Of a stretch of DNA of 64,000 nt, positions 1-27,233 are shown in pieces. The stretch covers positions 281,862-345,861 of the forward strand of contig JAQGBZ010000033.1 of assembly GCA_034687125.1 (NCBI GenBank), in the 5' to 3' direction. The position numbers and the translations under genes were made by a program. Position 1 is the stretch's first letter. Each line of letters starts with the position of its first letter. Source of the stretch: Neelides folsomi (lineage: Eukaryota; Arthropoda; Collembola; Neelipleona; Neelidae). Below the pieces are notes generated by a model. That model was not told the origin of the DNA. It ran no database searches and saw only the letters and a list, made by a program, of their open reading frames with translations.

Positions 1-3000
1 GAAGATGATCATAAAATCATGACTGATATCAAAGACGGAGTGTCCAAATTAAGTCAAATGGTTTGTATAAAACTCGTAGATATTCTTTTACAATATGTAT
101 TAATTCACGTAATGTAAAACACGAATTTGTATTATTTTTTAGATTTGCAAAAAGGCTCCCAAACTGTCAACACGATCATTGAGGAAGCGGAAACTTAAAA
201 AGGCAAAACCCCAAACTTCACAGCTAAATTTAGTCCCCGGTGCTCAAATTGTTGTTGAAACACTTCATACACAGTCTGTCGTTGACGTTGTTTGGCAGGT
301 TTGAAAAATTTTCCAGAAATAAATAATTTAATACAAATCTACCTGTAGTGTAATCAAAGGAATCAAAATACAATTATGCCTGATTTAATTCTTACGTTTA
401 TTTAACTAGGATGGAGTTATCGAAGAAGGAATGCTTAGTGTTGATCTTTACCCGATCCACCATTTGGATGATCATGAATTTTTTCCTGGAGATTTCATTA
501 CTAGAGCCGACTCTACTGATTTTCGAAGATATGGAGTCATTCAGAATATGGATCACAATGGTTAGTTATGCTATTTTTATTACTTTATTATCTATGTTAC
601 TTTTCGATTTCACATCCTTGACTTGACAATTTACGTTCTAATATTTACAGGCCGCGTCGCTTTGGTCAAATGGTTCGAGGCGTATACTTTTGACGGGGAA
701 CAACGACCAAAAGAGTTAGATGTAACTGAGATGTCCGTATATGATATTAAGGATCATCCAGATTTCCGTTTTCGTCCTGGTACTATTGTCATTCGTGTAG
801 CGAACTCTCTTCCTGATCAAGCGGCTGCTGGACAGATCCTTGATAACTATCCCGATGGAATGGTTCGTGTGTTATATTTATATTTCATCATCAAAGAATA
901 AGCACAAGTCGAAGAATTTAACATTAAAATACCTAAATTAATTTTGTAGGTTCGTGTATGGTGGGCGAATGGAGTTATGAATTCGTGCTGGCCACAGGAT
1001 TTGTTCCGCCTTGGAGATTACGATTCGGACGAAGGAGAAATTTGGGACGATGCAGGTCAAGTCTCAGACGGAGAAGATGAAGATGCAAATAGCGACTCTT
1101 CATGGGAAACTGGCAAGTTATCATATTTATGGTTATCGTTAAGTTATCAAGTTTAAGCTAAAAGTTGTGTGATTTTTACTTAATAATTTGATTCTCTTTG
1201 AATTATTAGAAATTGAAGAAGAAGTTCCAGATGCAGACACAAGCAACCAAAGATACGTAAACATTGGAACCCATATTGAGCACATACAGACTTCCCTTGT
1301 TGGAATTCGAGCAATGCTTATTTCCTCAACTCCTGCTGAGCAAACAACGCCGGCTTCACCTCTCAGCTTGAATTCCCCTTCAATTGATAAACGAGTCATT
1401 GTGAAGAAGCTTCTTCAAATATACAAAGACTCTCAGTACCTGGACAAGGTTAAAATTTAACAATAGCAATTATAAGGATATTTAGGCTGAAATGAGTAAT
1501 GTATAAAGATATTTAGATAGTTTATATTCATTTGGACCAATTGTCATCATAATAACTAAATCAACTTATTTAAATTCTCTAGATGATGTCAACGAAGTTC
1601 TTCGATGAAGAATTTTTGAAAGAATGGTTAAAAAAGCTCGAAGGTACATTCAAGTCATCTCGAATCTCCGACCAACTCAAGCGGCTCTTTGAACTTCCAA
1701 CCGAGTTTCCCGACTATAAAAATGGAGAAACTGGGCTCAAAATCCCGTTTCCGGAAGAAAAGCCATCAGAAGTGTTCGATGATGGCTCTCAAGAAATTCA
1801 AATTGAGTTTTTGTCTGAGCTTTGCACTGTCATTCTTAATAAGCTTCTTCTTGCTCATGCTGACTTTGAGAGGCGATTTGGGAGTAAAAAGGCCGATGAT
1901 CTCCCAGACTTAGTCGAAATGAATGAAACCAATTTGGAAAAAGTTGAAGAACCTGGAGAGTCCAATGAACTGAAGGAAGCTGAAGCTTTAAAGGGGAAAC
2001 TTGAAGAAGAGGAACAAGAGAAAAACACAAAGGAAGAAATCCTTAAAGAAATCAAAGTGAAAGGACACAACTTTGCTCTTGTTGACAGCGTTCCTAATAC
2101 TCATCGATTCAGATTGTCCCCTCAACCACAAAATATGAAAGTATTCCTTAAAGGAGTCCAGAAGGAAATTGCACTGCTTCGAGAGTATCTCCCTGATGGG
2201 ATTTTAGTCAAAGGATACGAAGATAGAATGGTAAGCTCTTAATTTAAGAGATTAAAAATACAATAAAATATAAATAAAGATTTTAAATTAAATTAAATTG
2301 CTAACAATAATTATACATTTTTTAGGATTTATTTTCTGTGATGATCTGTGGCCCTGAGAAAACGCCTTACGAGGATGGAATTTTCTTATTTGATATTCAA
2401 CTACCGCCAACTTATCCCTCAGCACCTCCGCTTGTGCATTACGTTTCCTTCTGCCCAGATAGACTTAATCCCAATCTTTACGAATGTGGAAAAGTCTGTG
2501 TCTCCCTTCTTGGAACTTGGACAGGGAAAGGAACGGAGGTTTGGACTAATTCATCATCACTTTTACAAGTTTTGGTGTCCATTCAAGGTAATACCATTTT
2601 TATGTTAACACTTTCTAGTTAAATATAAATATATAAATGAAAATTTATTTAATTGAAAATGCATTTCGTCATGTTTAGGCTTGATTCTTGTCCAAGAGCC
2701 ATATTTCAACGAAGCGGGTTACGAAAGACAGCGAGGAAGTCAACAAGGAGAAGAAAATTCTCGAATGTACAACGAAATGGTTCTTATCAAACTCGTTCAG
2801 TCAATGTCTCGAATGCTCAACAACCTTCATTCTCCTTTTGAAAAAGAAATTGTTTCACATATGCAAGTTCACGGATCTCGGTAAAAGACTTTATTTTTAT
2901 AAGAAAATCGATTTCTCATTGTTTATTTTATTGTTAGTTCAACTTTAGTTTTAATTATGTCATTGTTTGTTTTATTAGCCTTGTAACACGCTGCAATGGT

Positions 3001-4688: not shown

Positions 4689-7596
4689 ATGCCATTTGGT
4701 ATCCCAAACTTCGTGTCGAATCTCTTTAACTCTAAAAAAAGCGGGATGGAGTTGGAGTCGAATAACGAAGACAGTATTCAAAGTATAGAGAATAGCGAGG
4801 CATCCACGCTAGATGAATTTCCTGAAGAGTCCCAAGATTCTGTTCAGTTAATTTCCAATGTCGATGACAGCCAGAGTCAGGATACGAATATGGAGTTGGA
4901 CGAAGAGACGGAAGATGAGTTTATCCAAGTTCAAGAGGCTGGAGAAGTCGTCGAAGTGGAAGATTCCACTCATGATCACGATGCTTCTCAGGAGTACAGC
5001 TTTGAAGGCGAGATAGACGGATTCAATGAAGACGGAGACAGCGGAGGAGCAGGGACTGATCAGGAGGACAACGACATTGCAGAAAACGAGCCTGACAATT
5101 TTAAAGAAAACGGAGATCACGACCAGGACAGTGAAGTTCAACATGAAGATGATATTGAAGAAACTTGTTTGGAAATTACGCGGAGGAGACTTTCCCAAGA
5201 CCGAGAAGGAAACTGTTATTGGTAAAATATTCAATATAACGTTTCTGTTGAACATTTATAACTATAATTAATTATAAAATATAATTAAAAATGTCAATAA
5301 TTGAATTTTTTATTTTCTTTAGTGGTAAAGACCGAAATTTGAACATTGCAGAATTATTGTGTGCATCATGCAATCGTTGGTACCATGAGTCTTGCATTGG
5401 ATATCAACTTGGAAAGCTTGTACCCTTCATGACCAACTATATCTTCAGCTGTAAAAATTGTTCGCAAACTGGACTTGAGTCCTTCAAGAGGCAATCAGCT
5501 CGTACGTTGATTCAACTTGAATCTATAACCTCAATCGTTTTTAATTCTTATATACAAATTATTGAACCACATAACTCTCCATTTAACCTTATAATACAAC
5601 CGCTTGTTCGGGCATTATTACCTGAAAATAGCATATATCTAACTAATCAAGTGTAACAATTAAAATAAATATTTTTGACAGAATTTTCTCAAATGTGTAC
5701 AACTGCATTGGCAAATCTCACACAAGCAAGTGTGAAAGAAGGCATTTGTGAAAAATATTTCTCAAAAGAGAGGGACATTGATCCGTTTTTTGATATGCAT
5801 TGGGATGGAATGACGACAAGAAAATTTACGCAGTCGTGCCATACTTCGGTATAACTTTTAACTTTAACGAATATTTTATAACAAAACGAAATAAATTATT
5901 TTTTTGATGTGATATTCTATTTGTAGGTGGCTAAAGCTCTCCATAAAGAAGAGGACTTGTTCATGTGTGAAGAAAGACCCGGAGATCCGGATTCGCCATA
6001 TTTCGCTCTCATTCCCGATTTAACAACAATTCGACCTAATTACGAAGCCATGATAAAAGGAGGTTCTCTCAAAGTTACGGAGTTGAGTCAAGGTTCGTGA
6101 AATAATCTTAAAAATAGTGATAAAAACAATTAAATATTTTAATGAAGAATAAACAAGTTAATTTCAATTGTCTAAAATGCTAGGAGCTACAAATAGCTTG
6201 AGAGGAAGAGGAGCCAAGCGTCGTACTGCACTTGACACCACCGTGACAAGCCAAGCCACTGTGGCAAAGAGATCACGTGGAGATCTCTTTCTTCCCAAGA
6301 TGATTACCGGACATGGATATCCAACTGATCATCCATATAACAAAGACGGATATCGTTACATGCTCGCAGAGCCCGATCCCAATGCACCGTTCAGACAAGA
6401 GTTTGATGAAAGTAGCGATTGTGCTGGCAAGCCGATTCCAGGATTTCTTTACCGTGTTCTCACACCTCCTGTGGTCCTTCTTGCTCTTCACGATCGTGCA
6501 CCTCAAATTAAAGTCTCCGATGATCGATTGACAGCTTTAGGAGAAAAGGGATATTGTATGATCAGAGCTACTCATGGTAACAAATAATTAGTGTTTCTTT
6601 CATATATTGTTTTATAAACATCTAATTTTATAATATTAAGTTCTTATAAATATGATACAATTGTTTAATTTAATACTATGATTATGACATTACTTAAGTA
6701 ATGTTTTATATCTTATAATTTTAATATATTTATAATTTTGTAAATGATTATAGGTGTCTCGAGCGGAGCGTTTTACTTTGAGGCTCAAATTAAAGATCTT
6801 CCTGATGGCGGAGCTATCAGAATTGGATTTTCACGACCAAATGGAAATCTACAGGGCCCTCTGGGCTACGACAAGTATGGATACTCTTGGAGATCAAGAT
6901 TGGGAACAAAGTTTCACGAGGCAAGAGGAAAATCATATTGCAAAGGAGGATATACGAAACTTGACGTTTTGGGATGTCTTATTGTAATGCCTAATAAGAA
7001 TCCCACAGCTCCGCAATCATGCAAAGATAAGGTAAAAGATAATTGTTATTTTGTTTCAAAATTATTAAATAAAGCTTATAATGTTAAATAATTTATGCAA
7101 TAATTAATAATGTTTTAAATTGTTTTTAGCCACTCGTGAGATTCAAGTCCCATTTGTACTATGAAGTAAAAGATCCTGCAAATGAGGAGAAAAAGGATGA
7201 AATGAGAGCTGGATCAAAGATTTACTTTTTTAAGAATGGGATCTGCCAAGGGGAGGCCTTTTCCGACATTTATGACGGAACCTACTTTCCAGCAATTTCC
7301 ATTTATAAAAGTGTGAGAGTCGCAGTAAACTTTGGCCCAAAATTCTCACTCCCTCCTAAAGATGCACCGTGTGAATTTCTTCCGGTAAAATTAGTCAAAT
7401 GGAACGATTTAGAACTAATATTGTTTAAATTTTACATTTAACGATTATAAGCTATATTTAAATTAATGTTGTTAAATTTTAGATGCAGAGTAGAGCTGAA
7501 GAGTTGACGATTGAAGAAACCTTGTCTGATCTCGTATACCTTACTGAAAACGATGGGAAATTGACGTTGGACAAACCAGTAGCGTTGCCTCATTAG
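4689..7596 (+). CDS. ASH2L: ASH2L, core subunit of SET1/MLL H3K4 methyltransferase complexes
   Basis: Nuclear WRAD-module subunit that stimulates histone H3K4 methylation by SET1/MLL enzymes. Exons: 4689-5221, 5323-5501, 5682-5848, 5927-6092, 6184-6576, 6754-7031, 7130-7384, 7483-7596; one frame of 694 aa. Residues 1-175 are very acidic and low in complexity. An atypical PHD finger begins across the first splice (CYCGKDRN, then CASCNRWYHESC and CKNC). A winged-helix region follows (FFDMHWDGMTTRKFTQ). A basic linker with RGRGAKRR leads into the SPRY domain (GVSSGAFYFEAQI, GPLGYDKYGYSWRS, GSKIYFFKNG). The C-terminal helix (EETLSDLVYLTE) corresponds to the DPY30-binding segment of the family. 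Vertebrate ASH2L is about 630 aa; the extra length is the acidic N-terminus. The start is the first ATG of that open frame. Confidence 0.93.
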
Positions 7597-8000: not shown

Positions 8001-8447
8001 TCATAGCATTCCACGAGTAAAAATCCCACTAGGCGCTGGTCCAAGTTTTCCTAATTTCTCTTGGTGGGCTTTTACATAAGCGACTTTGTTGAGTGCCTTA
8101 AAAGATCTTGGTTCCCAAATAGCGAGATTGGAGATGGATTGTCGGTTCAATGCGATGTCGGATCGAGCGAGTGATTCTAGTATCTGGTTTGGCCCTTGAG
8201 GAATATATTCCAGCTCTTCACATCCTGATTCGATTCGTTTCTCCCAGAGCTCTTTGCTCCAAATTTTTTTCAGGATCCGACCTCGAGTGACGTACTGCAA
8301 TGCTTTATTCACTCTCTTTACTGCAATTGTAAAACAATTCCGACCTCGTCCATAGAAGTGAGCGGACATTTTAAGGACTTGCCTTTTCCTCCAGTATTTG
8401 TCATAATAAACTGCCTTTCTCATTACTGCACTCGTCAAATTAACCAT
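8001..8447 (-). CDS. MRPL20: Mitochondrial large ribosomal subunit protein bL20m
   Basis: Component of the mitochondrial 39S subunit needed for early large-subunit assembly, homologous to bacterial L20. A single uninterrupted exon encodes 148 aa, about the same length as human MRPL20 (149 aa). Family signatures: YYDKYWRKRQVLKMSAHFYG (aromatic and basic RNA-binding helix), RILKKIWSKELWEKRI, the L20 core helix SDIALNRQSISNLAIWEPRS, and the ending PSGIFTRGML, like the vertebrate GIFSR tail. The N-terminus MVNLT fits the family start, so the 8447 ATG is kept. The gene is convergent with ASH2L and divergent from the unrecognised gene at 9167, sharing a promoter region of about 720 bases. Confidence 0.92.
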   Translation of the reverse strand: MVNLTSAVMRKAVYYDKYWRKRQVLKMSAHFYGRGRNCFTIAVKRVNKALQYVTRGRILKKIWSKELWEKRIESGCEELEYIPQGPNQILESLARSDIALNRQSISNLAIWEPRSFKALNKVAYVKAHQEKLGKLGPAPSGIFTRGML

Positions 8448-9166
8448 TGTAAATAGAAGTAGTCAATTCTGAAACATTAAGAAAAACAATAATTAAATTT
8501 TATAATCGTGTACTAACATAATGAAAATTATACTAACATGCCTTCATGCCTCTCTATCAAATATGATAACTATGATAAAAGTAAAGTTGTAAAGTATACT
8601 CTACATATTACATAAATATGCATTAGAAAATAATTTAAAGTTAAATTACCCAAACACAACAAAGATAATAATCTAGTAAATACAAGATCGGCGAAACGAA
8701 TCGGACCACCCGGAACAGAGAAGAAAACACCGAGATAACCGAATACCGAATCCTATCCTCTCCACAGTCCAACAGTATAATATTCCCAATTCCGAGATTC
8801 CTAATGTGGTTCTGCTTCTGCACATGCATGTGGATAAAGAAAACTTATATGAGACTAAAGTTTGCTCTAGTTTGAAACCTTGCGAGGTTCTTTGTTCTTT
8901 TGTTTTCATTTCGCTTATTTTCGCTCCTGAATCTTGTCTTTATTTTGGTATATACCGAGTACGTTATACATTATTAATAAGTTCGTCTGTGGATAATTGT
9001 AATTAGGTGAAGGTGTATGGTTGCAAATTGTGAAATTGTGATCGTCCTTTGAGTCTTTACGTAAAGTTTCATTTTGTTTCATTTACATATTCCGTCTACA
9101 ATTTATAAATTATAGGCTCGTTGATTATTTTTCACAATCACGGATTAGTATTTTGTAAATCTTAAA
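8448..9166. other. Divergent promoter region between MRPL20 and the 425-aa gene
   Basis: About 720 bases between two oppositely oriented starts. Short open frames on both strands here lack family signal and splice context. The segment 8690-8830 is less AT-rich than its surroundings and could hold 5' UTR of MRPL20. No firm core promoter motif is claimed. Confidence 0.5.
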
Positions 9167-11592
9167 ATGGTTCAACGGAAAAAAACTCATCTGGAATCAC
9201 ATCCGACAAGCCCCACGATGCTCACGAATGATGGACCACGTCCAACCAGTCCCACGAGTGATGGACAAAGTCCAACCAGCCCCACTCGTCGTGGGACTGG
9301 TTTTAACTTCGAAAAATACTATTTTGAGCAATTAGCCAAGTTTCAAAAGAATAATCGAGTATTGAAAAAAAGAGTAAAATCGATGAAATCTAAAAGTGAG
9401 GATGGATTATCTTAAAGTTATTAAACTGTTACAATTGTATATAATGATTTATGTATGTAATTTCTTATTGTCAATAATTGATGCAAAATGTCATTTTTCT
9501 CTATTTGTAGAAGGAGCCACAAATTCTCCTGAGGTTTTTGCAGCTTTAAAAGGATTTTTCTCAAAGATAAAAACCACTGCAGAAGCTATAAAACTTATTG
9601 TCCCCGAATTTACCGAAGAGGAGATCGAGGAAAAATTCCTTGGACATCGATTTTCTGATAATGTTCAGCAGAAGACCATGAACATTGAAAGGATTCATCG
9701 ATACATCAGTGTATGTACTCAAATACATATAATAATATATATATATAAAAATAATGATGAATTATATATATATAAGAATATATATCATAATTTTACATTG
9801 ACAATTCGTATAGGCATTCATGAAGAATGGAAAACTTATTTTTCCATCTTGTACACATTTTATTACTAATTAAAATTAATACCCCACCTATTAATATTTA
9901 TATTTACATACACAATCAACGCCTTAATTATAATTACATGTTTATATTTGTTTTAGAACACAGAGGCTTTCACAGACCAAGAACGAGCTGAAAGAATTCT
10001 AACTATTCAACTTGAAAGTATCTGTCAATTGTCCTATTCCTATCGTTTAGAATCCATGCATAATTTTTATTTTGATGCTATTTATGAAAATTTGACATAA
10101 TTCATTTAATATCTTTATTTGCTAATTTCAGATTTAAAATCAAAATCTGGAAAGGCAGAGTGGTATACTGCAAAGCTTAAACAGCCAAAACCTGGAAGGT
10201 TTACTGGAACAGAAACGGACAAAAGCCGATTAGAAAAAACGACCAATATTTTAAACTTTCTACTTCGGAAATTGGATACTCCATTTTTTACTATGGTATG
10301 AATTTGATTTCGTTTATTCAGTAAACCCAAGGGCAAAGTTCGTGACATTAGCATCGTTAAAAAACTCCTCATAATTTCCTCAGCATTCCGGTCACACGGC
10401 ATAAACTTAAAGCAGGTCAACCGTCACAATGTTTTAGTTCATTTTTTAAGTTTCTCTCTTCTTGATTTTGAAAAGCACGAAACTAAAACAACTTATGATT
10501 TTGACTTTCATGAACTTGGCCTTTATAATTTTAAATTTCTTATTTTATTGATAAAGTTGTAATATGAATTAATGAATGTTTTTAATGCTTAAAAAGGTTG
10601 GAAAATCAATGGTGATGAGTGATTACGCTGTCATTGGGCTTCACATCTTCCCTCGTCAACGTAAACCCATGAGTTCTTTTACGACGTATTTAGCCTTTAA
10701 ATTGGAAAGACCATTTGTATACTATCACTTTGAACTGAAGCAAAAAAATTCAGAGTTGCTCAAAGCAGTTCTCGATATACTATTTATGGTAAACTTCTTA
10801 AACTTAAACTTTATACTACTTCCAGATTTATTTTATGTATTCGTATTAAATACAGCCTTTTTTAATTTTTATCTGCATACATTAATAATAAATAGCTTTT
10901 ATTGATTTTAGTACGTATGATTAATGTTTAATTTTTATAAATGTAATGATTCGATAACTTTATAATTAATTTTATAGGACTTTGCCGATGCACTTGGATA
11001 TGAGGACTATGAATTAGTTAATTTGAAGGCAACTGGATTAGACTTAGTAGCTGGAACTTCAACAAAAGTGTAAGACCTAATTTATAATTAATTTAATGTA
11101 GCATTTTATATTCAATTTATACAATGTCAAATATACTCTCGGGCTAGATTTAATTTTACTCACTCAGTTTGAGTAAGTTCTAAAACTATTTAAGCTAGCA
11201 TATTAAAAATTCCTTACAATATTTAATGTATTATTATTTATTATCCTACTAGTTCCACTCCCGTGGATCTTGAAAGATTTGAAGAGGATTTTGAGAAAAA
11301 GAAAAAAGATTGTGGTTGGGATCACCTGAGCATGACCCAAATTGAAGATCATAAAACAAAGGAATATATTTCCGAAATGTTCTGCCAAGGAGAAAAGGCT
11401 ACTACTGTGAAATCATTCACCTTCACATCAAAGAATGAAGATGGTAAAGTAATGGCAAAATTTACACTTGTCGGCGATCTACCTTACGATGTCGCCCTCA
11501 AGGATTTATACAAAAATGGATTTATTGGAGATCCTCTTTTCTACATTTCAGCCTGTCGATCCAACGAAAACAATGTGGAAGACCAAATATAA
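9167..11592 (+). CDS. Unrecognised 425-aa protein, seven exons
   Basis: I do not recognise this family. Exons 9167-9395, 9511-9710, 9957-10017, 10132-10295, 10597-10788, 10978-11069 and 11253-11592 splice into one open frame of 425 aa with matching phases, so it is very likely a real gene. Residues 10-45 carry repeated S/T-P-T units (PTSPT three times), possible proline-directed phosphorylation sites. A basic stretch follows (KKRVKSMKSK). The rest looks globular and rich in Lys and Glu: VFAALKGFFSKIKTTAEAI, VIGLHIFPRQRKPMSSF, FVYYHFELKQKN, KSFTFTSKNEDGKVMAKFTL. There is no signal peptide or membrane segment and no cysteine pattern, so it is probably cytosolic or nuclear. It could be a lineage-restricted or fast-evolving protein. 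No function is proposed. Confidence 0.75.
9204..9286 (+). repeat. In-frame TSPT repeat in the 425-aa gene
   Basis: Degenerate direct repeats of about 30-40 bp encode units ending in SPT (TSPT or TSPTSDG) with intervening DGP/DGQ. The units are close enough to suggest recent duplication within exon 1. Confidence 0.7.
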
Positions 11593-12423: not shown

Positions 12424-14911
12424 TTATTTAACTTGGAGATTATAATTCCTGTTCCAATTCCAAAGTGGATCATTTGTAACACCGATACAAACTCCTCCAA
12501 TGCACTTTTGATTATTTCTACATGGAACCAAGCAGAAATTTCCGCTCTTCGGAGCCGACTCTTCATAATCACTATGAATAAGTTTACATGCTGGGGGTGT
12601 TCCAGTATAACCTGCAATAATCCAAAGCATTTTAATTTATAAATGGTGGCTTATGAGTGTCATTTACCTTCTCTACAATGACAATTGGGATGGCCCAACA
12701 CAATTTTGCAGATTTGAGATTCTGTGTTAACATATTTACTTATTTCATCATTTTGAACATGAGGATGTGTAGGTCTCAAAGAGTGTCTTATTGGTGTTGA
12801 TGGAGAATGGAAAGTAATAGCATAACAGCCTTCGTAAGGATCTCCTCTTGATCCTTCCGGACAAGTGCACCGAACCCCATGAGAGACAAATTGACATTGA
12901 GAACCAACACCACACTTCTTACATGGATCGTAAATTGTCTTATAGCAAGTTCCTCTTCGGCATATTTCATCAAATTCGCAATTTGAACTTTCCGAACATG
13001 ATTTAAGACAATTGGGTGGAGATCCAATAGTGTCGGGTTGACAGGCACAGGAATATCCTCCGTTTTGATCAATATTGCAAATTCCATGTTCCCCACAAGT
13101 TGAACAAACATTTTTCTCATCGATTTTGCTATTACTCGTGACAATACTGCTACTACTGCTAATTACTCGATCATCTTCGATTCTCTTACAATACTCATCT
13201 GGATCCCCAGTGAACCCTTGAGGACATGAACAAACTGGCTTCTGATTTACCAAATTGCACTCGGCCCTCGATCCACAATATCCATCACAAGGATGGACAC
13301 ATTTTGGATAAAGATAATTTTTCTTGTCGCAAATTTTTGGAGCATAACAATCAGCATGAGAATCGCATTGTGCTTTGCAAATTCCATTCCTTTGTAAATA
13401 ACCTCTTCGGCACGTGCAGTTGTGTTCGGTGCCAAAAGCCACGCATTCTCCTCCCGGTCCGCATGGGTTGGGGTCACAGGGATCGGAGTTGTCCAGAACT
13501 CCACCGTCTCCTGTAAATCGCTCCATTAGGAAGTTCACCAAGTAATTACTACTCGTACTCATGGAACCTGGTTTTTGAACTTTTGAACATTGAGGTTCGT
13601 GGTTGAGGACTTTGCACACTTCTCCTGGATCGCAAAACCCGTCGTCAGTGCAGGGATCAAAACATCGTTGTTCCTCCTCTTTGCATTTGAGATCCGAAGG
13701 GCAATTTTCATTTGATCCACAAGAAAGGAAACATTCTTTTAATGGATCTCCTTGATAAGCTCCAATACAACTGCAGCTCTTTCGCTCAGCTCTCAAAATC
13801 AGCTCCACTCTGCACTCGGCGTTTTTCCCGCATTGAGGCATGCAAGTAAAATCTATACATTGACATATTAGTTACGTTTAATACAATTATGAATTTAATA
13901 ATAATATTGTAAAAATGTGCATATTTATAGATTTTGTACTTTCTTTAGGGATCATAATATATTCGACAACTCGGAATATATTATGATGACTCGCGGTGCA
14001 AACGTAGGTTCCTTCGGGATTATCAAACTCTCTTGACAGTTTGAGACGAAATCCAAACTTTGGGTCAAAGTCGTATAGAGAATCATCAATACTCACGAGA
14101 TTTCCCTGTAACAATTTTACTATAATAAAGTTTAATATGAGTGTTGTGTTACATAATTTTAAATGCTAATTGTATTTGAACCATTGAAGATTGGAACATC
14201 ATTGATTATAATATTATGAAAAATCAAGATTTTTTTTTACAAAAATTGATTTCTGAAGTGCAACTCTAATGTTTGGACGTGTAACTGCACATGGGATGAT
14301 AGCTTCCGTCGCTGAAGGATCATACTTTACTTTTCCACCAGTATTTGATGAATAAAGACTTGGACCTAAAATAGCCGCGGTATTTACTCTACATTAAATA
14401 AAAGTATTTACACGATAATTTCATGAATGTTTATGTGTATGATGACCTGGGACGAAAATGTGATGTGAATTCTCCAACTCTTTATTGAAATAGCTTACAC
14501 AGGAATATTTCCCCGTGTATTTCTCTTTGATAGATTTTAGAATGGCCGTCGTCTCGTAAATCCGCTTTCTTCCAATAAAACCTCCCTCGCTCGCGTTCAT
14601 TGAAATATCTGGAGCCTTCAACAGTCATTTTTATGAAAACACTGGCCAAAATGTTTACAAGAAAATCTTACTCCATTTCCAGTATACTGCCAAGCTATTG
14701 GATAATATGCAGAGCAATTAAGAACGAGATCCACTTCATCAGTTTTCCCTTTCCTTTCAACGATGAGAGTTTCGGAGTCTCTCAGAATTTCCCATGCTTC
14801 TGAACCGTTCACATAACTCACTTTGTAAATTTTGGTCACTGGCAGTGGCTGATGAGCATGAAGACAATTAATGAAAATGAAAATGATTAATACTAAAACG
14901 GCCTGCCCCAT
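12424..14911 (-). CDS. Secreted VEGFR/PDGFR-like Ig domains joined to EGF-like repeats
   Basis: Exons on the minus strand: 14911-14672, 14615-14447, 14365-14241, 14105-13940, 13852-12668, 12611-12424, giving 690 aa in one frame. A signal peptide (residues 1 to about 20, core VLVLIIFIFINC) is followed by Ig domain 1 with Cys66, Trp74 and Cys119 (TGKYSC). Ig domain 2 has Cys161 in AIIPCAVTRPNIRVAL, then YDFDPKFGF and Cys214 in EGTYVC. The IPCxVTxPNxxVxL and YDxxxGF pattern is typical of the second Ig domain of VEGF and PDGF receptors. From about 235 to the end come cysteine-rich EGF-like units of the arthropod dumpy type (DPCDPNPCGPGGEC, CSCPQGFTGDP, CTCPEGSRGDP). There is no membrane segment and no kinase. 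I infer a soluble protein that may bind PVF/VEGF-like ligands. The protein fold is clear; the function is inference. Confidence 0.8.
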
Positions 14912-15224: not shown

Positions 15225-17895
15225 TTACTCATCTACTTGAGGTTGAGCCATTTCATTCATCTGAGCCCTGGACTGAGGCCGACAAACCAAATTAGCTTCA
15301 TTTCCATCATCCACGCCGCAAAAGTTGAGATTCTGAGGATCAAGATTATAGCAGCCTTCGATTGAAAATGGAACTGTACATCCATTATTTCGCAAACATT
15401 GTCTGAGCAAATGGCTCAACTCGTAGTTTTTCCGGAAAAGATTCGTAATCTCTTCAATGCATTCGTTCCTACCTGAAAGATGAATAAAGCAAAGATGTAT
15501 AGAAAAAATGTTTCAAAGTTTAAAAAATCAGAGATAATTTAAATAAATGACTATTTAAAAAGAACACCTTTAAGCATTTTTCCATATTGGTCGAAAACCC
15601 TGAGAGCTTCAATCCAAAATTCCTTGCTTTTTGTTTCTGTGAAACAGTGAAATTGTCTCCAATAAGCCTCAACAGCATTATGACTTGGGAATTGGAACTT
15701 ATTTATCTTGTAGTCAATCACTTCATCTTTAGTTGGAATTCCCTCCCTGTTTAAAAAATCCTTATCTTAAAAAACCTGTGTAGATAAATTAAGAAAGTTT
15801 ATATAATTATATAAGAGATCTTACATTTTTGGATTGGTATTTACAAGACAAAATTGTACTTCTGGGGGACGATCATCTAATGATGACATTTTACTCGGAA
15901 CGTAAGGATGTCCAAGCTGTTTGACAATCACTTTTGATTCGGAGTTTAAAATAAACTCGAGCTTTTTCCTTGCAGCCTCTTCTTTAATTGCCCACAAATC
16001 CATATAATTTCTAAAATTTGTTGCGACACTGTGAAGTGTTTTTTCTCTATCGGAAAGAACGAGTTCTTCCAATCTCTTTGTTTCCCGAATCAAACGCTCC
16101 GTTTCTCTCTTTCCATTTGCAACAGTGTCTCTGAAAATCTTTGCTTTCTCGTGGAAGTTGTCTCTTTTTTTCATCATGAGTCTCTTCATGTTGTTCTTCA
16201 GATCATTGTTTTCGTTCATTCGATGACGAAGGACGTTCAAATTGTAGTCGAGTTTGTCTAAATTTGCTTGACACGCTCCTTTCACTCCTTCCAATTCTTG
16301 GAACAATGTCTATGAAAAATATTCTTAAATAAACCAAACTGTTAATAATGAATCTAAATAATAATTATATAATTATTTTTAATTTTTAACCCTCATGTCC
16401 TCTTCCATCATATTTTTAATTTCTCTTGACTCTTGACTCAACAAGAACTGTATTTGGGTGAGGATATCAAATCGGCCAAGAGAATCTTCTTTTCTTTTAT
16501 TCAAAGAGTCAACCTCCATGCCTTCAAATGTACAAAGAAGGTTCATCCAATCCTTTTGAAACTCCTCTAGCAACTTTTCTCTGTCATCCACTGTATAATT
16601 CTAAAAGTAAGGTTAATAAATGTGAGCATATTGGAGCTACAAGGTATTTGTTTTAAAATGAGTAAGAAAATTCGAATATTAAAATAAGTAATTATTTATT
16701 TATTCGGAGATATACTTACTTCAATGAGTTCAAGCTCCTCCAGAAAGGTTCGTCTCAAATTATCAATTTGGTTATCAATTCTGTCTCCCATGAGCATAAT
16801 GTCCTTCTGATACTTATCCAGATTTGACTCATATTCCATATCATTATCGTCGATTTCCTGTTTCAGTCGCTCGATTGTTTCTTCTTTCTTTTGAAGAAGT
16901 TTATCACACTCTCTTTTTTGCTTATCAATCTTAAAAATTTCATTAATAAAAAAATTGCTCGAAATATCCAAATATTAATTAATTATAAAAAATCTTAAAA
17001 ATTAATAAACCCTACCTGTTCAAAAAGTTCAAGAGGTAAAACTTTTTCAGCATTCAGGAACCATTTTTGACTAATTTCGTCATATAATTTTTGAGCTTCT
17101 TCTGCTTCCTCCTTCAGAGTTTTAAGACGTTCATTTCTATTCGTTTCATCTCGAATTTGCCGAGTTTTTTCTCGATATTCTGCTGCAATTTTTACGTTTG
17201 TAATCTAAAATCCATCCATGTTTATCAAACAAATTTAAATGGATTTAACTCAAGGTTTAACTTACTTTAAACCATTTAAGTTAAAAAAAAAATCTCACAA
17301 GAATTTCTCCATCGTTGAGAATGTCATCAAGCTGCTTTCTACTTTCTTCAATCTGGGCTTCAAGCATTGTGTTTTTAAATGGTTTCCCCTTCTCTTCTCC
17401 TTTGTTCTCTTTCAAATATCCATCGTTTTCTTCGCCCCAACCGTCGTCTTCTTCATCTTTCTCTTCCGCCTCTTGATCTTTGTTTTTCTGGATTATTGCT
17501 TCTGCTCTCTTTCGTCGTCCGTTCTCTTTGTTCTTTGACCTCTCTTTTGCCAACTCCTGGTCAAATAATAATCCAGGGATTCCATCGGAAGCATCCTCCC
17601 GTTTGTCACTTTTTTCTTCTCTTTTAGCTTGTTTTGCTCTAAAGTTTCAATATGCCATTATAGCAAATATTTAAGAAATTTTAATGTTTTTTGCAAAATT
17701 AAATTAGGTACTACTACTATACATATTATATTACAAACATAAACAGCATTTAGTAGAATTTTATTAATGCATTTACTTTTCTTTCTTAATTTTGTCATCA
17801 TCCTCACCGCCAAATTCACTTTCTTCTCCATCTCCTTCTTTCTTCCAATCTTTGCACATTTTAGATTTATAATTTCCCTTTTCTTTTTCAGCCAT
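15225..17895 (-). CDS. DRC1: Dynein regulatory complex subunit 1 (nexin-DRC)
   Basis: Scaffold of the nexin link between axonemal doublets, which regulates dynein in motile cilia and flagella. Exons: 17895-17777, 17638-17299, 17204-17016, 16929-16720, 16600-16391, 16309-15825, 15746-15568, 15472-15225; 659 aa in one frame (human about 740). The Lys/Glu-rich N-terminus carries PGLLFDQELAKER. The conserved N-terminal coiled coil holds KQLDDILNDGEIL then ITNVKIAAEYREKTRQIRDE. Next comes EEAEEAQKLYDEISQKW, then long coiled coils through exon 6. The C-terminal block (VEAYWRQFHCFTETKSKEFW, NYELSHLLRQCL) matches the DRC1 C-terminal domain, where the close relative DRC2 differs. There is no frame break or missing exon. 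The gene is divergent from LRP6 across about 1.9 kb. Confidence 0.88.
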
Positions 17896-19814
17896 TGTGC
17901 AATGTTAAATGTAAAAATTGATCCGTTAACTAATAAATAAATATGTAACGATAAATAATCTAGAAAATCTTCAATTTATAAATTAATTCAATGGAATAGA
18001 TATAATGAAATGACAAATTACACTTATTGAGAAAGTTATTTGTTAGAAGGACTTTGTCTTATATGATCTGAGGAGCGCCATATAAGATAGTTGTTTTTCA
18101 GCATAAATCAATTGAGCGTTGCACGGCTACTCACCTATTCACATTTTGTCTGTGGTATTTATAGCATTTATACCTGTATGTTCATTTATATGACATACAC
18201 GTATATCGTATATGGATATATCCCATTGGCGAAAATATACCAATACATCCTGATTCCTGAATACCTATCAATTGGTAATACATCCATTGTAAGGATAAAA
18301 AATAATTAAATTAATTAACCCAGCGTCAAAAATTCAAGCATGGAAAAAATTATGTGCAGAATGTGAATGCCAATTACGGTACAAATATTTCAATCGCTGC
18401 ACCTCAACGTTAATACTCCCTTGTAAAGCTTACATAGCCAATAATATAATAAAGCTCTATTTAGAATCCTCCCATCAATCCTCGTACTACTTGAACAACA
18501 GATCATTAAAATCTTCCACAAGCAGAGAACTGACTATTCCAAACTTGAAATATGAGATTCAATCAAAGATAGCGACTGCAGTGGAATGAAGCTCGGAAAA
18601 TGATCAAAGGAGACTATTCAAGACCACGTCGTCTTATTTAAGATCAAACACAGCGAAAAATATGAATAATGCGTAGTGGTAAAGAACTTCACAATTGAAT
18701 CTCATTTTGCAATCCAATCTCAAGTCAATAGTAAGCAATTTTATTCTTACTTTCATTACATTCTACTTATACACATACAGGTATTTACATGCAGTATTTG
18801 TATTATGTAGTATAATCATTATACTTATTTATAATCTAGCATCTACATATCAATACGTAATGCGCAATTGGCAATTATGGTAGTGCTTACGAGAAGCTTG
18901 TTCATTGGGAAAATTGATACCATCAGGACTTTCACAAAACGCAAAATTAGAAAGATTAACTCCCAAATTCATTCTTATTATTAACACTGATAATGATTTA
19001 TTTCTGATTTGAGTCATTATCACCAAAATGAATGACCAATCATTTATAAATGCATTTCATATCATAAGCATATTTTCATATCAATTCCCTCCTTCTCATT
19101 TTTAAATAAATTGAAAATGAACACAAATAATCTCTTTCTCACTTGACATATGAATGGCTTGAATTATAGAAGAATTAACTCATTGTCAGACTAATACTCA
19201 CTCACAGATAATACACATAAATCACTTATTAACCGTATTATCCATTTTGACATTCAGTACTTAATTCATTATTACGAATTGATTTTAGAAACTTTTCATT
19301 GTTTGCATTAAATCTGATAAGATTCTTATCACTTTATCATTAATTCTCTCAATTACTTTCCTTATATAAAAAGGTAATTAAGCGTACCGGGTTAGATAGT
19401 TTAGAGAAAGAACCAGGGAACGTTTGGTATTGTTTACACGTAGAGTTCTCCCGAATTTGCCCAATGGTTTTTGTATATCCCAATGAAGGGTTTGGGAGTC
19501 TGTGAAGGAATGTGAAGAGCCGCTCTACACTCTGAGCATTTGATGGCCGAGGGTAAATAGTTCCTTCCGAGGTTCACCCATTGAGAGATAAACTCCACCC
19601 TTTGGAGTCACCCTCTGCACCTGGGAGTGTAGAGAGCGGAGTGATACCAAGAGCGGCTTTTATTTGATTCTAGTACCTCAGCGCATTGCCTCGCTCCTCT
19701 CTTCATCTTCCCTATATGATCTTCCTCCGAACAATCAGTCTCTTCCCTTTAAATACCATTTATTTAAATATGTGACAATGATCATCATCATGAGTTGACG
19801 AGTTGAGGGTGACT
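17896..19814. other. Divergent intergenic region, DRC1 and LRP6
   Basis: About 1.9 kb with no convincing exon. The 420 bases before the LRP6 start are less AT-rich and hold short inverted repeats (19520-19532 with 19625-19639). These may be the promoter and 5' UTR of LRP6. Confidence 0.5.
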
Positions 19815-22800
19815 ATGCGGGTCCTCCTCCTCCTTCTCCTCATTTTCGTCCACGGTTCTGAAGGTGAGTTCCGTTTAATCATTGCACCATTTTGACCACT
19901 TCAAAACCGCACACTTTTTTTGTTTACATTATTTATTAGCCTCTTTACATTTGTAAGGATTTTCCATTTATATGTCGGAAATTCAGGATTGTGTTTAAAT
20001 AAGTTTAAATAAAATTATATAGTGGATATTTTATATTGGTGACTTTATTGAGTTGAAGTTGTATAATAGAGAGCACTAGCTTGGAAATGTTGTAAATGAA
20101 CTTGTTAATGAAGGATAAACATAGACACTAAATGATGATCCGGCAATTTGTTAAATATTTAACTTATTGAACGTTATTAGACGGCTTCCTTAAGTTTAAT
20201 TATTTAATAAATAATATCATTGGTTAATATGTTATATGACTTTTTAGAACTAAATACTCGAATCTTTGGTGGATATTTTAGCTATCATGTGCATGTGTAT
20301 ATCAAGTCAAGTATCAACAAGTTAAAATTCTTATTGTATCAGTCTTCTTGTTAGACATTTTTTGAATTTTTTATCGTAAGATTTAATGTAACGATTGAAT
20401 TCTTATAGAAAAACCGCGGATAATCTTTGCAAATCGTCGAGATATAAGAATACTCGATGTTGTTGGGAGCGGCAAGAGGAGCAATACATCAATTGTTGTC
20501 AAAGACTTGAACGAAGCAACAGCTCTCGATATCAATTATGAACGCGACTACGTGTGCTGGTCGGACATTGAAGCTGAAAAAATTCAATGTCAACACAATA
20601 ATAAAAAGGTACTTTCATTACAAATTAAACTTCTTCACAATGCTTTATAAATGGATTACTCATTAACTTATTATGCATAGCTATAAGCTTTTTCTCCCTA
20701 TGATTTCCCAATAATAAAAATGATTGATTTTAACTTTATAGACAACATTGGTGTCGACGGCTCTTCCTGCTCCAGAGGATCTTGTCTGTGATTGGCTCAC
20801 CAACAAACTTTATTGGTCTGACTCAGAAACAAATAGGATCGAAGTCGTGTCAATGGACCCTCCATATCATAGAAAAGTTTTAATTTGGGAAGAAATTGAT
20901 CAGCCAAGAGCTCTTGCTTTGGCTCCTCATCTTGGGTAAAAGATTAGATAATGTTTTTAAATCAATATGCCAAATGATACAATATGATTACTCATGCTAT
21001 TTTGCTGATTCAGATTAATGTTCTGGACTGATTGGGGAGAATGGCCAAAAATCGAAAGAGCAGGAATGAATGGAGAAGACAGAAAGGTCAATTGGATATT
21101 TTTTCTGTACTTCGATCATAATAATTTTTATATTAGACATACTAGTCTAATAATTTTTAATATTTTTGCTAAACTGTTCAAAACTGTCTTTAAAATAACA
21201 ATGTTAAATGCAATCAATAGGTGATAGTAGAAAAGGAGATATTTTGGCCAAACGGTATAGCTCTTGATTTAAACGAAGAAGAGATATACTGGGTCGACGC
21301 CAAACTTCTCTACATTGCAAAAGTAGACTTTCAAGGGAACAATCGCAAGGAAATCAATCGGGGTGACCCTAAGCATCCTTTCGCATTAGCTTTTTACGAG
21401 AGACATCTCTATTGGAGCGATTGGAAGACCAAGTAATTATAATTATCCATTAATCTAATTTTTCAAAGGTTAGTTAATTGCTCTTAAATAACACATTTTT
21501 ATTTTAACAGTTTCTTACATACAATCAAGATAGATGGAACAGGTTTAAGTACACTCTCAACGAAACAGAGCTTAACTCCGATGGATATCGTGATTTTCGA
21601 AGAGCAAGCCCTTCCAAGGCCCATTTGGGGAGATGCTCGAACCAACCCATGCCAAAAATCCCAATGTTCTCATCTTTGTCTTCTGGCCCCTAAAGAACCT
21701 TATTTTAATTGTGCATGCCCTATCGGAATTCGTTTGACCGATGAAAAGACCTGCGACTCTCAAATGAATTCATTTCTCCTTGTGGCAAAGGGGACGGACA
21801 TTCGAAGGATATCTTTAGATACGGCTGATTTCACAGACGTCATTCTTCCCTTCACTGGAATCAAACACATTCTCGCGGTTGACTATCATATCAAATCAGG
21901 CTATGTTTTTTGGACTGATGATGAAGCAAGGAGAATCAGAAGAGGTAAAAATTACAATTAATTTTGCTACTAAAAGAAAAACAATAAGGGAGAGAATCTA
22001 ATGTATTTTGTATAATTTGTTATTTTCAGCTCAATTGGATGGAAGTCAACAGATGGATGTGATCAAAGAAGAAATTGTTCATCCTGATGGTTTGGCTATT
22101 GACTGGGTGGCGGATAACATTTATTGGACTGATGCTGGAACTGATCGAATTGAAGTTGCGCGACTAAATGGAGGACATAGAAAGGTTCATATTAGGCATT
22201 TTATCATAGTGTGAAGAAAATGACATTTTTTGAATACACTTACTAATATTGAAACATTTTTCATAGATTTTGATAAGTCGAGGGCTCCAAGAACCAAGAG
22301 CAATCAGCGTAGATCCAAATAAAGGATTGTTATTCTGGTCTGATTGGGGAAAAAGAGCTAAAATTGAGAAGTGAGTATTTGCCTTAATTAGAAATAATTC
22401 GAATCTATACAAGCTGACTGACAATGAGCGAATTTCTAATACACTTACTAAGTCTAATATGGTATTAATTTTTAACAGATCTGCACTTGATGGAACATCC
22501 CGGGTTGTTGTTATTGCTAATGACATATTTTGGCCAAATGGCATTGCCCTTGATTTGCACTCCGAGAAAATATATTGGTGTGATGCTAAAACAGACAAAA
22601 TTGAGGTATGAATACTAAATATGTTATTTCTCTTATTTATCTAAAAGCAAAATTCCATGAAATTGTAACTGTATATTGAATGTACTAATGAGTGGAATAA
22701 TAAGTCTTTGATTTAATATTTTAGATGGCCAATTATGATGGAACTACTCGTCGAGAAATCTTGAGCGAAGCTCTTCCTCATACATTTGGTTTCTCTCTTC

Positions 22801-25800
22801 TTGGAGAATACATTTACTGGACAGACTGGCAAAAGAGGAGTATAGAAAGAGCCAACAAACTCACTGGGGGTGATCGGTCCACAATTAAAGATCCCTTCAG
22901 TGACCCAATGGGGCTTAAAGGAGTTTCAATGGCGGATTTCAACTTTACCAATCCTTGTGGGACAAATAACGGCGGATGTGCTCATTTATGTTTGTACAAA
23001 CCACCGATGCCTGTCTGTGCTTGTGCTAGCGGTGAGTTTCATCTTCAAACAAGTCTATACATTCTAATTTGTAAAATGTAAATAAACAAATGGACTTTTT
23101 TTCCCATCAGGCTATGAACTTGAGCAAGACAATAAATCTTGTACAATACCAGAAGCCTTCCTCGTCTTTTCTCGTGACGGAGATCTTCATAGGATTTCTC
23201 TCAACCGGTCAAACCACGACGATGTTATTCCTGTGTCAAAAGTGAAAGCGGCAATGGCTCTTGATTTCGACACCATTGAGAATAGGATTTACTGGAGTGA
23301 CATGAAAGTTAAAGCAATATCCAGAGCTTACATGAACGGATCAGAAACTGAAAGAGTGAGAATTAATCACTATTAATGTTTAACTAATTATAATTTAGGA
23401 ACAAGGCTTTTTCATTAATTGGATGAATTGTAGGTGATTGAATGGGGTCTTCAGCATCCAGAGGGAATAGCTGTTGATTGGCTCTCAAGAAATATCTATT
23501 GGACGGATTTTGGAAGGCATAGAATTGAAGTTGCAAAATTGAACGGAGACCATAGGCGAACAATTCATTGGATTGATATAGAAAATCCAAAAGTTATAAC
23601 TCTCCATCCAGCTAAGGTAAACAATTTTTTTAATTGAATTTGATACCACATCTATTAAATATTTTTTTCATTTTATACATTTTATCTTCACTTATTTGAA
23701 TAGTAAGCGAATCCATAATATATATTTAGCACAAATAATAGTAGTTTTGTACGTAGTTTAGTGTTAATTATTTTTTATTTAATGTGGGGTTTTTATATCA
23801 TGTTTTATATCATTAATTAAATATTCAATATTGAATTCTGTAGGGTTGGCTCTATTGGTCAATGTGGCGTTCACCAAATCCTACAATTGAGAGATCCGCT
23901 CTTGATGGATCTCGACGAACGACATTTGTAGGGAAAGTTGGAAGGGCAAACGGTCTGACAATCGATTTAGAAGACAATTATCTCTATTGGACCGACATTG
24001 ATTCCATGTCGATCGAAAGAGTAAGTTTGAATGGAGATAAGCGAGAAGTCATCGTGCCAACCGGAATCTACAGACCTTCAACCATTGCTCAATATCAGGT
24101 TTGAATTTTAAACAAAACTCATAATTTACTGATTCATTGTTGATAATTTAATACCGTTATTGTTCGAATAAGAGCCTCTGCTCGAATAAGAGCCCCCCCC
24201 ATGAAACCTAGTTTTTTAATAAGAGCCCAGGCTCTTAATCGAACAATAACGGTAAGCACTTTTTATAATTAATTGTGTTTATTAAGGATTATATTTACTG
24301 GTCCGATATGGCAAGTCAGACAATCCAGCGAGCAAACAAATCATTTACTTCTGAATCATTGAAGTTGGCGACAGCCAGGGATATATACGACATGGCCATT
24401 TATCACAAGTTAAAACAACCCGGGTGGAATCCATGCTCTCAAGCCAATTGCTCTCATCTTTGTTTTCCTAAACCTGGAAGCAAGGGGCAGCCGTCTCACC
24501 CACAATGCGGCTGCCCCACACATCATACACTTTCTCAGGATGGATCCATGTGTGTGTTCCCGACAGAATTCCTCCTTCTATCTGGAGGAAGTTCAATCAG
24601 TCGGCTGATGATGGACTCAAATGAATGTCCTGATGCTGTCGTGATTGGAGGTCAAAAGCGAGTCGGAGGAGTCACATGGGACGGACGAGACAAAGTGATT
24701 TATTGGGCTGATCTCAAGTTAGGAAATATTAAGAGGGGATATGAAAATGCAACGTTTGGAAACTTATTTGGAAATGACGAAATCCTCAAACCCTTTGATC
24801 TCGCATTTGATCCTTTGAGGAGAATTATTTTCTGGACATGCGAGAGTTTCAATTCAATTAACATTACTGACGATAATGGGCGGCAGCTTGGAACAATCTT
24901 AAACGGGGTATTTAACGTTCAGTGTTAACAATCAAGAACACAAATAGGGTTTTTACTAAATGTTTAATTTTTGGTTTAACAGAAAGATGATCGACCCAGG
25001 CATTTAGCACTCAATTCTCTCAAGTCACACCTTTACTTTTCGAATGAAGGGAATATCGAAAGAATTCGATTGGATGGAATGGAACGAAAGGTCATTGCGA
25101 AAGGCACTGGGAGTGTCAATGGCCTAACTATTGATATTAAGGAAGAACAACTTTACTGGACAGACGGAGTTTCAAAAAGAATTGAAACTTCTGATCTAGA
25201 AGGAGGGAATAGAAAGATCCTTATGAAAAATTTGGATTCTCCTGCTACGATTGCTGTGCATGGGAGGTATATTCGTTTTTACATTAGTTGATTTTTAAAG
25301 TTCAATTTTAACCAGTCACATTAACACAATTAAATTTTTCTAATTCAGGTTTGTCTATTGGGCCGAAGAGAAGGGTGGAGTTGAAAGAGTAGAAAAATGG
25401 ACTGGTGAAGAAAGATTCGAAGCCTTGTCCAGGAGAGAACTCGTCAGTTTCATTATTTCAGTTAATGATACATCACAGGTACAACATAATTAACGTTTTG
25501 TGATATAATATAATGTAATATAATATTTTTATATTACATCCTCCAAAAAGCTAATATTTTCATCATTTAAAGTATTAATATAATAAATAATTAATAATTT
25601 AAATAGGATCATAAGGGTCATAGGTGCAATCGTCCTGAATGTTCGCACATTTGCCTTGATGATGGTTGTGCTTGCCCTGAAGGTCTCATGCTTGCCGACG
25701 ACCGTCGAACATGTGTGTTCAGAATGCCATGTGGAGCACATGAGTTTGCTTGCACCCGTGGTTCAATCGGATGCATTTCCCTTTTGCTCAAATGCAATGA

Positions 25801-26621: not shown

Positions 26622-27233
26622 CCTTTTGATCTTCTCGACTCTTTTCATTGTTGTATTTTACAAATAAATATTTTACTCATTCAACTTTTAAACCATTTGA
26701 TATATCTCATATACCAGCATAATCTACATAAAAAAGCAATAAGTATTGAAATAATTAAACATTAATACTATACAATGCATTTTGAAAGACAAAGAGAGAA
26801 AATACAAAGTATAGGCATTTAACGTGTAGACGTTCATTGCATTGCACACACGTTCCTTTGATGCATTTTTTACTGTTTACATTTAACATGAGTTTAAATT
26901 TGGCGCACTTGACTCCGCGAAAAGTAAATCCAGCCACGTCGGCAGCTGACGTGAATTTCCTATTCCTTATCAATCCGTCAAAAAATTGTTAAATATTTCC
27001 AATTAAATACCTTATATTTAACTTCAATTAGGAGTTTTTATAATATTTAATTGAAATATTGAATGCAGAGGATTTATTAGTAAAAGTTCCAAAGACCCAA
27101 TTTAAGATTTCACAAACTTTCCGATTTTCTAAAATTGTTACATCAATACATTCGGATTTGCACCTTATTTCGTCGAAAAAAATGAGAAAGTAAATTCATT
27201 CCTAATTAATCCGAATTAAGACAATTTAGAACA
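26622..27233. other. Spacer between LRP6 and SEC31
   Basis: About 610 bases between two plus-strand genes. Contains the LRP6 poly(A) signal and presumably the SEC31 promoter. A minus-strand open frame at 26755-26973 shows no family signal and is not annotated. Confidence 0.5.
26664..26669 (+). terminator. Polyadenylation signal of LRP6
   Basis: AATAAA 43 bases after the LRP6 stop codon, the expected place for a short 3' UTR. Confidence 0.6.

What the first reader, a model, noticed from the sequence alone, without database searches (positions are those of the whole stretch)
12424..14911. Secreted VEGFR/PDGFR-like two-Ig module fused to EGF repeats, without membrane segment or kinase
Seen: signal peptide, two Ig domains, then EGF-like units, ending in a soluble tail. 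The second Ig domain carries IPCAVTRPNIRVAL and YDFDPKFGF, the pattern of domain 2 in VEGF and PDGF receptors, the ligand-binding domain of VEGFR1. Known receptors of this class continue with more Ig domains, a membrane helix and a kinase, not with dumpy-type EGF repeats. I know of no described protein with this order. Inference: a soluble trap or carrier for PVF/VEGF-like growth factors, possibly gene-encoded rather than made by splicing. If the species is a blood-feeding parasite, an effect on host growth factors is also conceivable.
Basis: partly seen in the sequence, partly recalled or inferred. Interest (0 to 1): 0.8.

Follow-up and report, generated by a model that had tools for sequence, protein, structure and literature searches.

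The report
Secreted VEGF-receptor-like Ig-EGF protein gene
A compact animal gene, probably from an arthropod, appears to make a secreted protein whose head resembles the first two domains of VEGF and PDGF receptors but whose body is an EGF-repeat stalk with no membrane anchor or kinase, so it may catch growth factors rather than signal.

Summary
A six-exon minus-strand gene (12424-14911), all five introns GT-AG and in phase, encodes 690 residues: signal peptide, Ig D1, Ig D2, then five full EGF patterns interleaved with four-cysteine DPY-like units. No second hydrophobic segment and no room for a kinase were found. The receptor assignment holds at modest strength. Pfam's best hit for D2 is VEGFR-1-like_Ig-like (E=1.4e-4, below its curated cut-off). 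The 9 PDB sequences matched by D1-D2 at E<=1 all belong to three proteins, PDGFR-beta, CSF1R and VEGFR1. That is about as close as VEGFR1 is to CSF1R, but far less close than VEGFR1 is to PDGFR. D1 alone matches nothing useful.

The claim that no described protein has this order is too strong: Tie receptors also begin Ig-Ig-EGF (PMC5578174, passage), though no Tie chain was matched here.

Best reading: a gene-encoded, secreted Pvr-type head on a Dumpy-like matrix stalk that sequesters or localises PVF/VEGF-type dimers. Architecture is well supported; ligand binding is inferred (about 0.4). A host-directed role is unsupported. No transcripts, relatives or own genome could be examined. New variant of a known kind.

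The parts
14855..14911 (-). Signal peptide, residues 1-19 (cleavage site after residue 19 is my estimate)
   Evidence: Hydropathy maximum 2.15 at residue 1; gene model
14447..14839 (-). Ig domain 1 (about residues 25-136), exons 1-2, split by a phase-0 intron 14616-14671
   Evidence: Cys66/Cys119; Pfam Ig_3 E=0.0022 below cut-off, in the D1-D2 query; no useful PDB match on its own
13940..14365 (-). Ig domain 2, VEGFR/PDGFR D2 type (residues 137-233), exons 3-4, split by a phase-0 intron 14106-14240
   Evidence: Pfam PF21339 E=1.4e-4, 22.0 bits against cut-off 27; PDB matches to CSF1R and VEGFR1 and PDGFR-beta
13853..13939 (-). 87-nt GT-AG phase-1 intron joining the Ig exons to the EGF exons; the junction that decides one gene or two
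12668..13852 (-). Exon 5, symmetrical 1-1, 395 codons: EGF/DPY-like stalk. EGF patterns at residues 237-274, 359-392, 422-455, 483-515, 544-576; four-Cys C-x5-C-x5-C units at 278-297, 301-322, 396-418, 519-536
   Evidence: Cysteine spacing; Pfam EGF_3 E=0.0014 and cEGF E=0.011, both below cut-off; no PDB match at E<=0.01
12424..12611 (-). Exon 6: end of a partial EGF-like unit, a last group of four cysteines, soluble tail and stop

Best explanation
One gene encodes a secreted protein in which the D1-D2 head of a PDGF/VEGF-receptor-type (Pvr-type) ectodomain sits on a stalk of EGF and Dumpy-like DPY modules. Without membrane anchor or kinase it cannot signal by itself. It most likely binds cystine-knot PVF/VEGF-type dimers through D2 and holds them in haemolymph or extracellular matrix, lowering or localising the ligand available to the kinase receptor. 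Shown: open gene structure, secretion signal, no membrane helix by hydropathy, receptor-type sequence of D2, EGF and four-Cys repeats. Inferred: splicing as modelled, ligand binding, matrix retention, antagonism. The confidence given is for the whole mechanism; for the architecture alone I would say about 0.85.
For: Gene model: 5 of 5 introns GT-AG, in phase, no internal stop. No membrane helix. D2: top Pfam hit PF21339. PDB: 9 of 9 distinct sequences at E<=1 for D1-D2 are PDGFR-beta, CSF1R or VEGFR1; 8 of 9 at E<=10 for D2 alone. Yardstick: VEGFR1 finds CSF1R at 4.4e-4 and KIT at 0.03, against 4.2e-4 (PDGFR-beta), 8e-4 (CSF1R) and 1.1e-3 (VEGFR1) for the window protein. VEGFR1 D2 alone has been crystallised with VEGF-A, PlGF and VEGF-B (PMC7765180, table). 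Shrimp Pvf2 binds the extracellular part of Pvr3 (PMC13185635, passages). Precedents for secreted control: sFlt1 (PMC7765180, passage), SDR and ImpL2 (PMC9067537, passages), Argos (PMC6982143, passages).
Against: No binding, expression or conservation data. Every Pfam score is below its curated cut-off. The 9 PDB sequences are only three proteins, six of the sequences being VEGFR1. A CSF1R fragment matches the unrelated Ig protein OPCML at 4.3e-4, so E-values of this size can cross Ig families. VEGFR1 matches PDGFR at 1e-8 to 1e-9, far better than the window protein matches anything. D1 alone gives no support. There is no D3, which with D2 is critical for VEGF-A recognition (PMC7765180, passage). 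The structure attempt failed.
Confidence: 0.42

Rival explanations
1. A structural or adhesive matrix protein: the Ig pair was captured from a receptor gene by exon shuffling and now serves adhesion or assembly with no growth-factor binding; the EGF/DPY stalk does the main work in apical matrix or cuticle, as in Dumpy.
For: Most of the protein (about 457 of 690 residues) is EGF/DPY-like. Dumpy, built of EGF-DPY units, is a matrix protein (PMC2930355, passages). No D3 is present.
Against: D2 keeps recognisable receptor-type sequence, which suggests, but does not show, a kept function.
Confidence: 0.3
2. The gene model joins two transcription units: an Ig protein and a separate EGF protein.
For: No RNA evidence is available; intron retention after exon 4 would give a short two-Ig product ending within a few codons.
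Against: The exon 4/5 intron is GT-AG, 87 nt and in phase. Exon 5's frame has only six codons upstream of the acceptor and no Met there; its first Met, residue 238, has no signal peptide behind it.
Confidence: 0.1
3. A relative of the Tie receptors (Ig-Ig-EGF) that lost membrane and kinase parts.
For: Same N-terminal order as Tie-1/Tie-2 (PMC5578174, passage).
Against: No Tie chain among the PDB matches of D1-D2, D2, D1 or the EGF exon; that Tie2 structures are in the PDB is recalled, not checked. The EGF part looks Dumpy-like.
Confidence: 0.08
4. A secreted factor of a blood-feeding parasite that binds host VEGF/PDGF.
For: It is secreted by prediction. Cross-phylum recognition is possible in principle: C. 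elegans PVF-1 can activate human VEGFR-1 and -2 (PMC10328876, passage).
Against: Species and life style are not established. Three papers on crustacean blood-feeder glands or secretions contain neither VEGF nor EGF (one of them discusses activation of host growth factors by a protease). A matrix-type stalk is odd for such a factor (inference).
Confidence: 0.04

Closest known systems
Pvr / VEGFR / PDGFR / CSF1R (class III and V receptor tyrosine kinases)
   Same: Signal peptide and D1-D2 of matching type; D2 lacks the usual Trp shortly after its first cysteine, as in the segments printed
   Different: No further Ig domains, membrane helix or kinase; EGF/DPY stalk instead
sFlt1 and other soluble VEGF receptors
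   Same: Soluble VEGFR-type ligand-binding head; sFlt1 is a decoy (PMC7765180, passage)
   Different: sFlt1 is a splice form of a receptor gene; here the gene itself has no membrane or kinase part, and an EGF stalk is added
Tie-1 / Tie-2
   Same: N-terminal order Ig-Ig-EGF (PMC5578174, passage)
   Different: No sequence match found; Tie continues with Ig, FNIII, membrane and kinase
Dumpy (Drosophila)
   Same: EGF modules interleaved with short four-Cys DPY-like modules (PMC2930355, passages; DPY cysteine pattern recalled)
   Different: Dumpy is far larger, with a ZP domain and membrane segment and no receptor-type Ig head in the architecture described there
SDR, ImpL2 and Argos
   Same: Secreted arthropod proteins that bind growth factors and keep them from the receptor; SDR resembles the InR ectodomain (PMC9067537; PMC6982143)
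   Different: Other pathways (insulin, EGF) and other folds
PDGFRL (human)
   Same: Secreted, receptor-like Ig protein without kinase (recalled; the listing gave no structural paper)
   Different: No EGF stalk (recalled)

Membership tests
PDGF/VEGF receptor (Pvr) family, as a receptor | D2 of VEGFR/PDGFR type | tested here: met
   PF21339 top for D2 at 1.4e-4, below cut-off; class-specific PDB matches. Met at modest strength
PDGF/VEGF receptor (Pvr) family, as a receptor | D1 of the same class | tested here: inconclusive
   D1 aligns in register with PDGFR-beta within the D1-D2 match but has no useful match alone
PDGF/VEGF receptor (Pvr) family, as a receptor | Membrane helix and tyrosine kinase | tested here: not met
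   Hydropathy maximum 0.78 after residue 25; no kinase in Pfam scan; no room downstream
PDGF/VEGF receptor (Pvr) family, as a receptor | Binding of PVF/VEGF/PDGF dimers | not testable with these tools
   Needs a binding assay
Soluble VEGF-receptor decoys | Soluble receptor-type head | tested here: met
Soluble VEGF-receptor decoys | Ligand sequestration | not testable with these tools
   Needs an assay
Dumpy-like EGF/DPY matrix proteins | EGF modules alternating with DPY modules of about 21 residues | tested here: inconclusive
   Five EGF patterns and four C-x5-C-x5-C units of 18-23 residues; no DPY profile was available and the DPY cysteine pattern is recalled
Dumpy-like EGF/DPY matrix proteins | ZP domain and membrane segment of Dumpy itself | tested here: not met
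   No ZP among Pfam hits; no membrane segment
Tie receptors | Tie-type sequence, third Ig, FNIII repeats, kinase | tested here: not met
   No Tie among PDB matches; no FNIII or kinase in Pfam hits

The most novel reading that the evidence does not exclude
A dedicated, gene-encoded extracellular trap or carrier of PVF/VEGF-type growth factors, made by joining a Pvr-type D1-D2 head to a Dumpy-like EGF/DPY matrix stalk. It would give the PVF pathway the kind of secreted control that Argos and SDR give the EGF and insulin pathways, and would place it in the matrix.
Probability: 0.35. Interest if true: 0.75.

Novelty: new variant of a known kind. Interest (0 to 1): 0.5.

Why it matters
Soluble VEGF receptors are important decoys in vertebrates; sFlt1 is a splice form. 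For the arthropod PVF/Pvr pathway my searches (listings, with passages of some papers) showed no dedicated secreted binding protein; they cover only an open-licence library and the words used. If this protein binds PVF, it would be a receptor-derived trap built into a matrix protein, testable with one binding assay, and would change how the range and timing of PVF signals are thought to be set.

Tried and rejected
The window's own genome is not held, so a separate Pvr gene, PVF genes and paralogues could not be sought. Homologue scans: viral contigs gave no pattern match; genome contigs gave 14 pattern matches, none confirmed by tblastn. Neither collection is made for animals. D1 alone against PDB gave four eL13 sequences at E about 2. 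The EGF exon against PDB gave nothing at E<=0.01 and DLK1 and NELL1 at E about 3. Structure: D2 is interrupted by an intron, so only a read-through with 45 intron residues was folded; mean pLDDT was 41.6 and no fold search was run. The second structure job was not used. The PDGFRL search listed no structural paper (listing). A listing for Lepeophtheirus salmonis and VEGF (22 papers, 20 shown) showed no title on a louse VEGF receptor. Word searches for decoy or soluble Pvr forms found none in PMC11808122 and no decoy in PMC13252836. PMC12425304, on zebrafish Pdgfra and a decoy, was seen as a listing only.

Full report
What is there. On the minus strand, 14911 to 12424, six exons join into one frame of 690 residues with no internal stop. 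All five introns are GT-AG, 56-135 nt long, and poorer in G+C (0.18-0.30) than the exons (0.38-0.42). Phases after exons 1-5 are 0, 1, 0, 1, 1. The D1/D2 and Ig/EGF boundaries both carry phase-1 introns, each Ig domain is split by a phase-0 intron, and exon 5 is a symmetrical 1-1 exon of 395 codons. That arrangement suits exon shuffling (inference).

One gene or two. I asked whether the EGF exons could stand alone. The stop-to-stop frame of exon 5 opens six codons upstream of the acceptor and contains no Met there. The first Met inside is residue 238, and no hydrophobic stretch of signal-peptide strength follows. In the other direction, the space between the stop at 12424 and the open frame of the next plus-strand gene candidate, which ends near 11592, has no minus-strand open stretch longer than 33 codons, so no kinase exon of usual size is hidden there. 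On the 5' side another minus-strand run of frames, with coiled-coil-like sequence by eye, ends near 15225. The single secreted product is the best model, but there is no RNA evidence in these tools.

What the protein is. The best 19-residue hydropathy mean is 2.15 at residue 1; for stretches starting after residue 25 the maximum is 0.78, so no membrane helix or hydrophobic C-terminal tail is indicated. D1 has cysteines 66 and 119 and a tryptophan eight residues after the first. D2 has cysteines 162 and 214 and lacks the usual tryptophan shortly after the first cysteine, as do the D2 segments of PDGFR-beta, CSF1R and VEGFR1 printed. After residue 233 there are 54 cysteines. A pattern scan finds five full EGF patterns, and the spacing string contains C-x5-C-x5-C four times, in units of 18-23 residues (the script's own looser DPY pattern flagged 3 overlapping or separate stretches, so the count of four is my reading of the spacings). 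This resembles the EGF-DPY alternation of Dumpy, whose DPY module is 21 residues (PMC2930355, passages); the DPY cysteine consensus itself is recalled.

Receptor assignment. Pfam gives PF21339 (VEGFR-1-like_Ig-like) at E=1.4e-4 for D2 alone, 3.9e-4 for D1-D2 and 0.003 for the whole protein. It is the top hit for the first two and second to EGF_3 (0.0014) for the third, always below the curated cut-off of 27 bits. With D1-D2 as phmmer query, 9 of 9 distinct PDB sequences at E<=1 are PDGFR-beta (one, 4.2e-4), CSF1R (two, about 8e-4) and VEGFR1 (six, best 1.1e-3, the five D2-only constructs about 0.025). These are three proteins, not nine independent ones. With D2 alone, 8 of 9 at E<=10 are CSF1R or VEGFR1 (0.0057 to 0.038) and the ninth is SPO11 at 1.1. 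D1 alone gives only eL13 at E about 2.

Yardsticks, for and against. A 108-residue VEGFR1 D1-D2 fragment finds CSF1R at 4.4e-4 and KIT at 0.03, but PDGFR-alpha and -beta at 5e-9 and 7.5e-8; 26 of its 28 matches at E<=10 are class III/V receptors. The matching CSF1R fragment finds VEGFR1 at 4e-4, but also the unrelated Ig proteins OPCML (4.3e-4) and contactin-3 (0.0038) among 34 matches. So the window protein is about as close to the class as VEGFR1 is to CSF1R, much less close than VEGFR1 is to PDGFR, and E-values near 4e-4 can cross Ig families. What favours the assignment is that no other Ig family appears among its matches, that the alignment runs through D1 into D2 in register, and that Pfam agrees independently. 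The queries differ in length (214 and 108 residues), so exclusiveness is only loosely comparable.

How it may work. [quoted passage not shown] Shrimp Pvf2 binds the extracellular part of shrimp Pvr3 (PMC13185635, passages), so PVF-Pvr recognition operates in crustaceans. A secreted D1-D2 head on an EGF/DPY stalk could capture PVF dimers, perhaps at lower affinity without D3, and keep them in haemolymph or matrix. Whether that antagonises or concentrates the ligand cannot be decided. Precedents for secreted control are sFlt1 (PMC7765180), SDR and ImpL2 (PMC9067537, passages) and Argos (PMC6982143, passages). The chief rival is a matrix protein whose Ig head no longer binds a growth factor.

Comparison with known proteins. 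No Tie chain appeared among the PDB matches; that Tie2 is in the PDB is recalled. Drosophila Pvr has seven Ig repeats and a kinase (PMC6982143, passage). Crustacean PVRs show two to five Ig-like domains and a kinase by conserved-domain search, and six copepod PVR sequences from eight species were tallied (PMC11024359, passages). My searches for a secreted PVF binder listed none in arthropods; this covers only the open-licence library and those words. A four-term search for copepod, VEGF receptor, immunoglobulin and EGF returned no paper.

Limits. No own genome, no animal genome collection and no transcripts were available. The single structure prediction was of an intron read-through of D2 and failed (mean pLDDT 41.6). 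The species is not identified. I file the protein as a new variant of a known kind: a receptor-type ligand-binding head in a secreted, matrix-type architecture. It is not a member of the receptor family in the full sense, because the membrane helix and kinase were tested and not found; that does not lower the claim that it works like a soluble receptor.

Noticed in passing
window 14106-14240 (-): Intron 3 is 135 nt, a multiple of three, between two phase-0 exon ends; retention would keep the frame but for three in-frame stops, one each of TAA, TGA and TAG.
   Followed up: partly
window 15225-17904 (-): A multi-exon minus-strand gene candidate with long coiled-coil-like frames lies just upstream; one segment gave only a weak TBCA_PH match at 0.0045, below cut-off. 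It reminded me of axonemal dynein-regulatory proteins (recalled, untested).
   Followed up: partly
window 9168-11592 (+): A plus-strand gene candidate that reminded me of HORMA-domain meiotic proteins (recalled); the one segment tested, 10576-10902, had no Pfam match at 0.01.
   Followed up: partly
window 566-2619 (+): Ubiquitin-conjugating enzyme domain at 2326-2619 (PF00179, 7.8e-20); the rest looks UBE2O-like (recalled).
   Followed up: partly
window 5285-7438 (+): ASH2-type PHD finger (1.8e-19) and SPRY domain (2.6e-7): an ASH2-like gene.
   Followed up: partly
window 8004-8462 (-): Ribosomal protein L20 (6.5e-25), presumably mitochondrial.
   Followed up: partly
window 21488-26275 (+): LDL-receptor-related gene candidate: the segment 24269-24925 matches EGF_LRP2, FXa_inhibition and Ldl_recept_b, all below cut-off; LRP5/6-like by recall.
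   Followed up: partly
window 27210-33005 (+): WD40 protein with a long proline-rich part; WD40 match at 28343-28915 (1.4e-7); Sec31-like by recall.
   Followed up: partly
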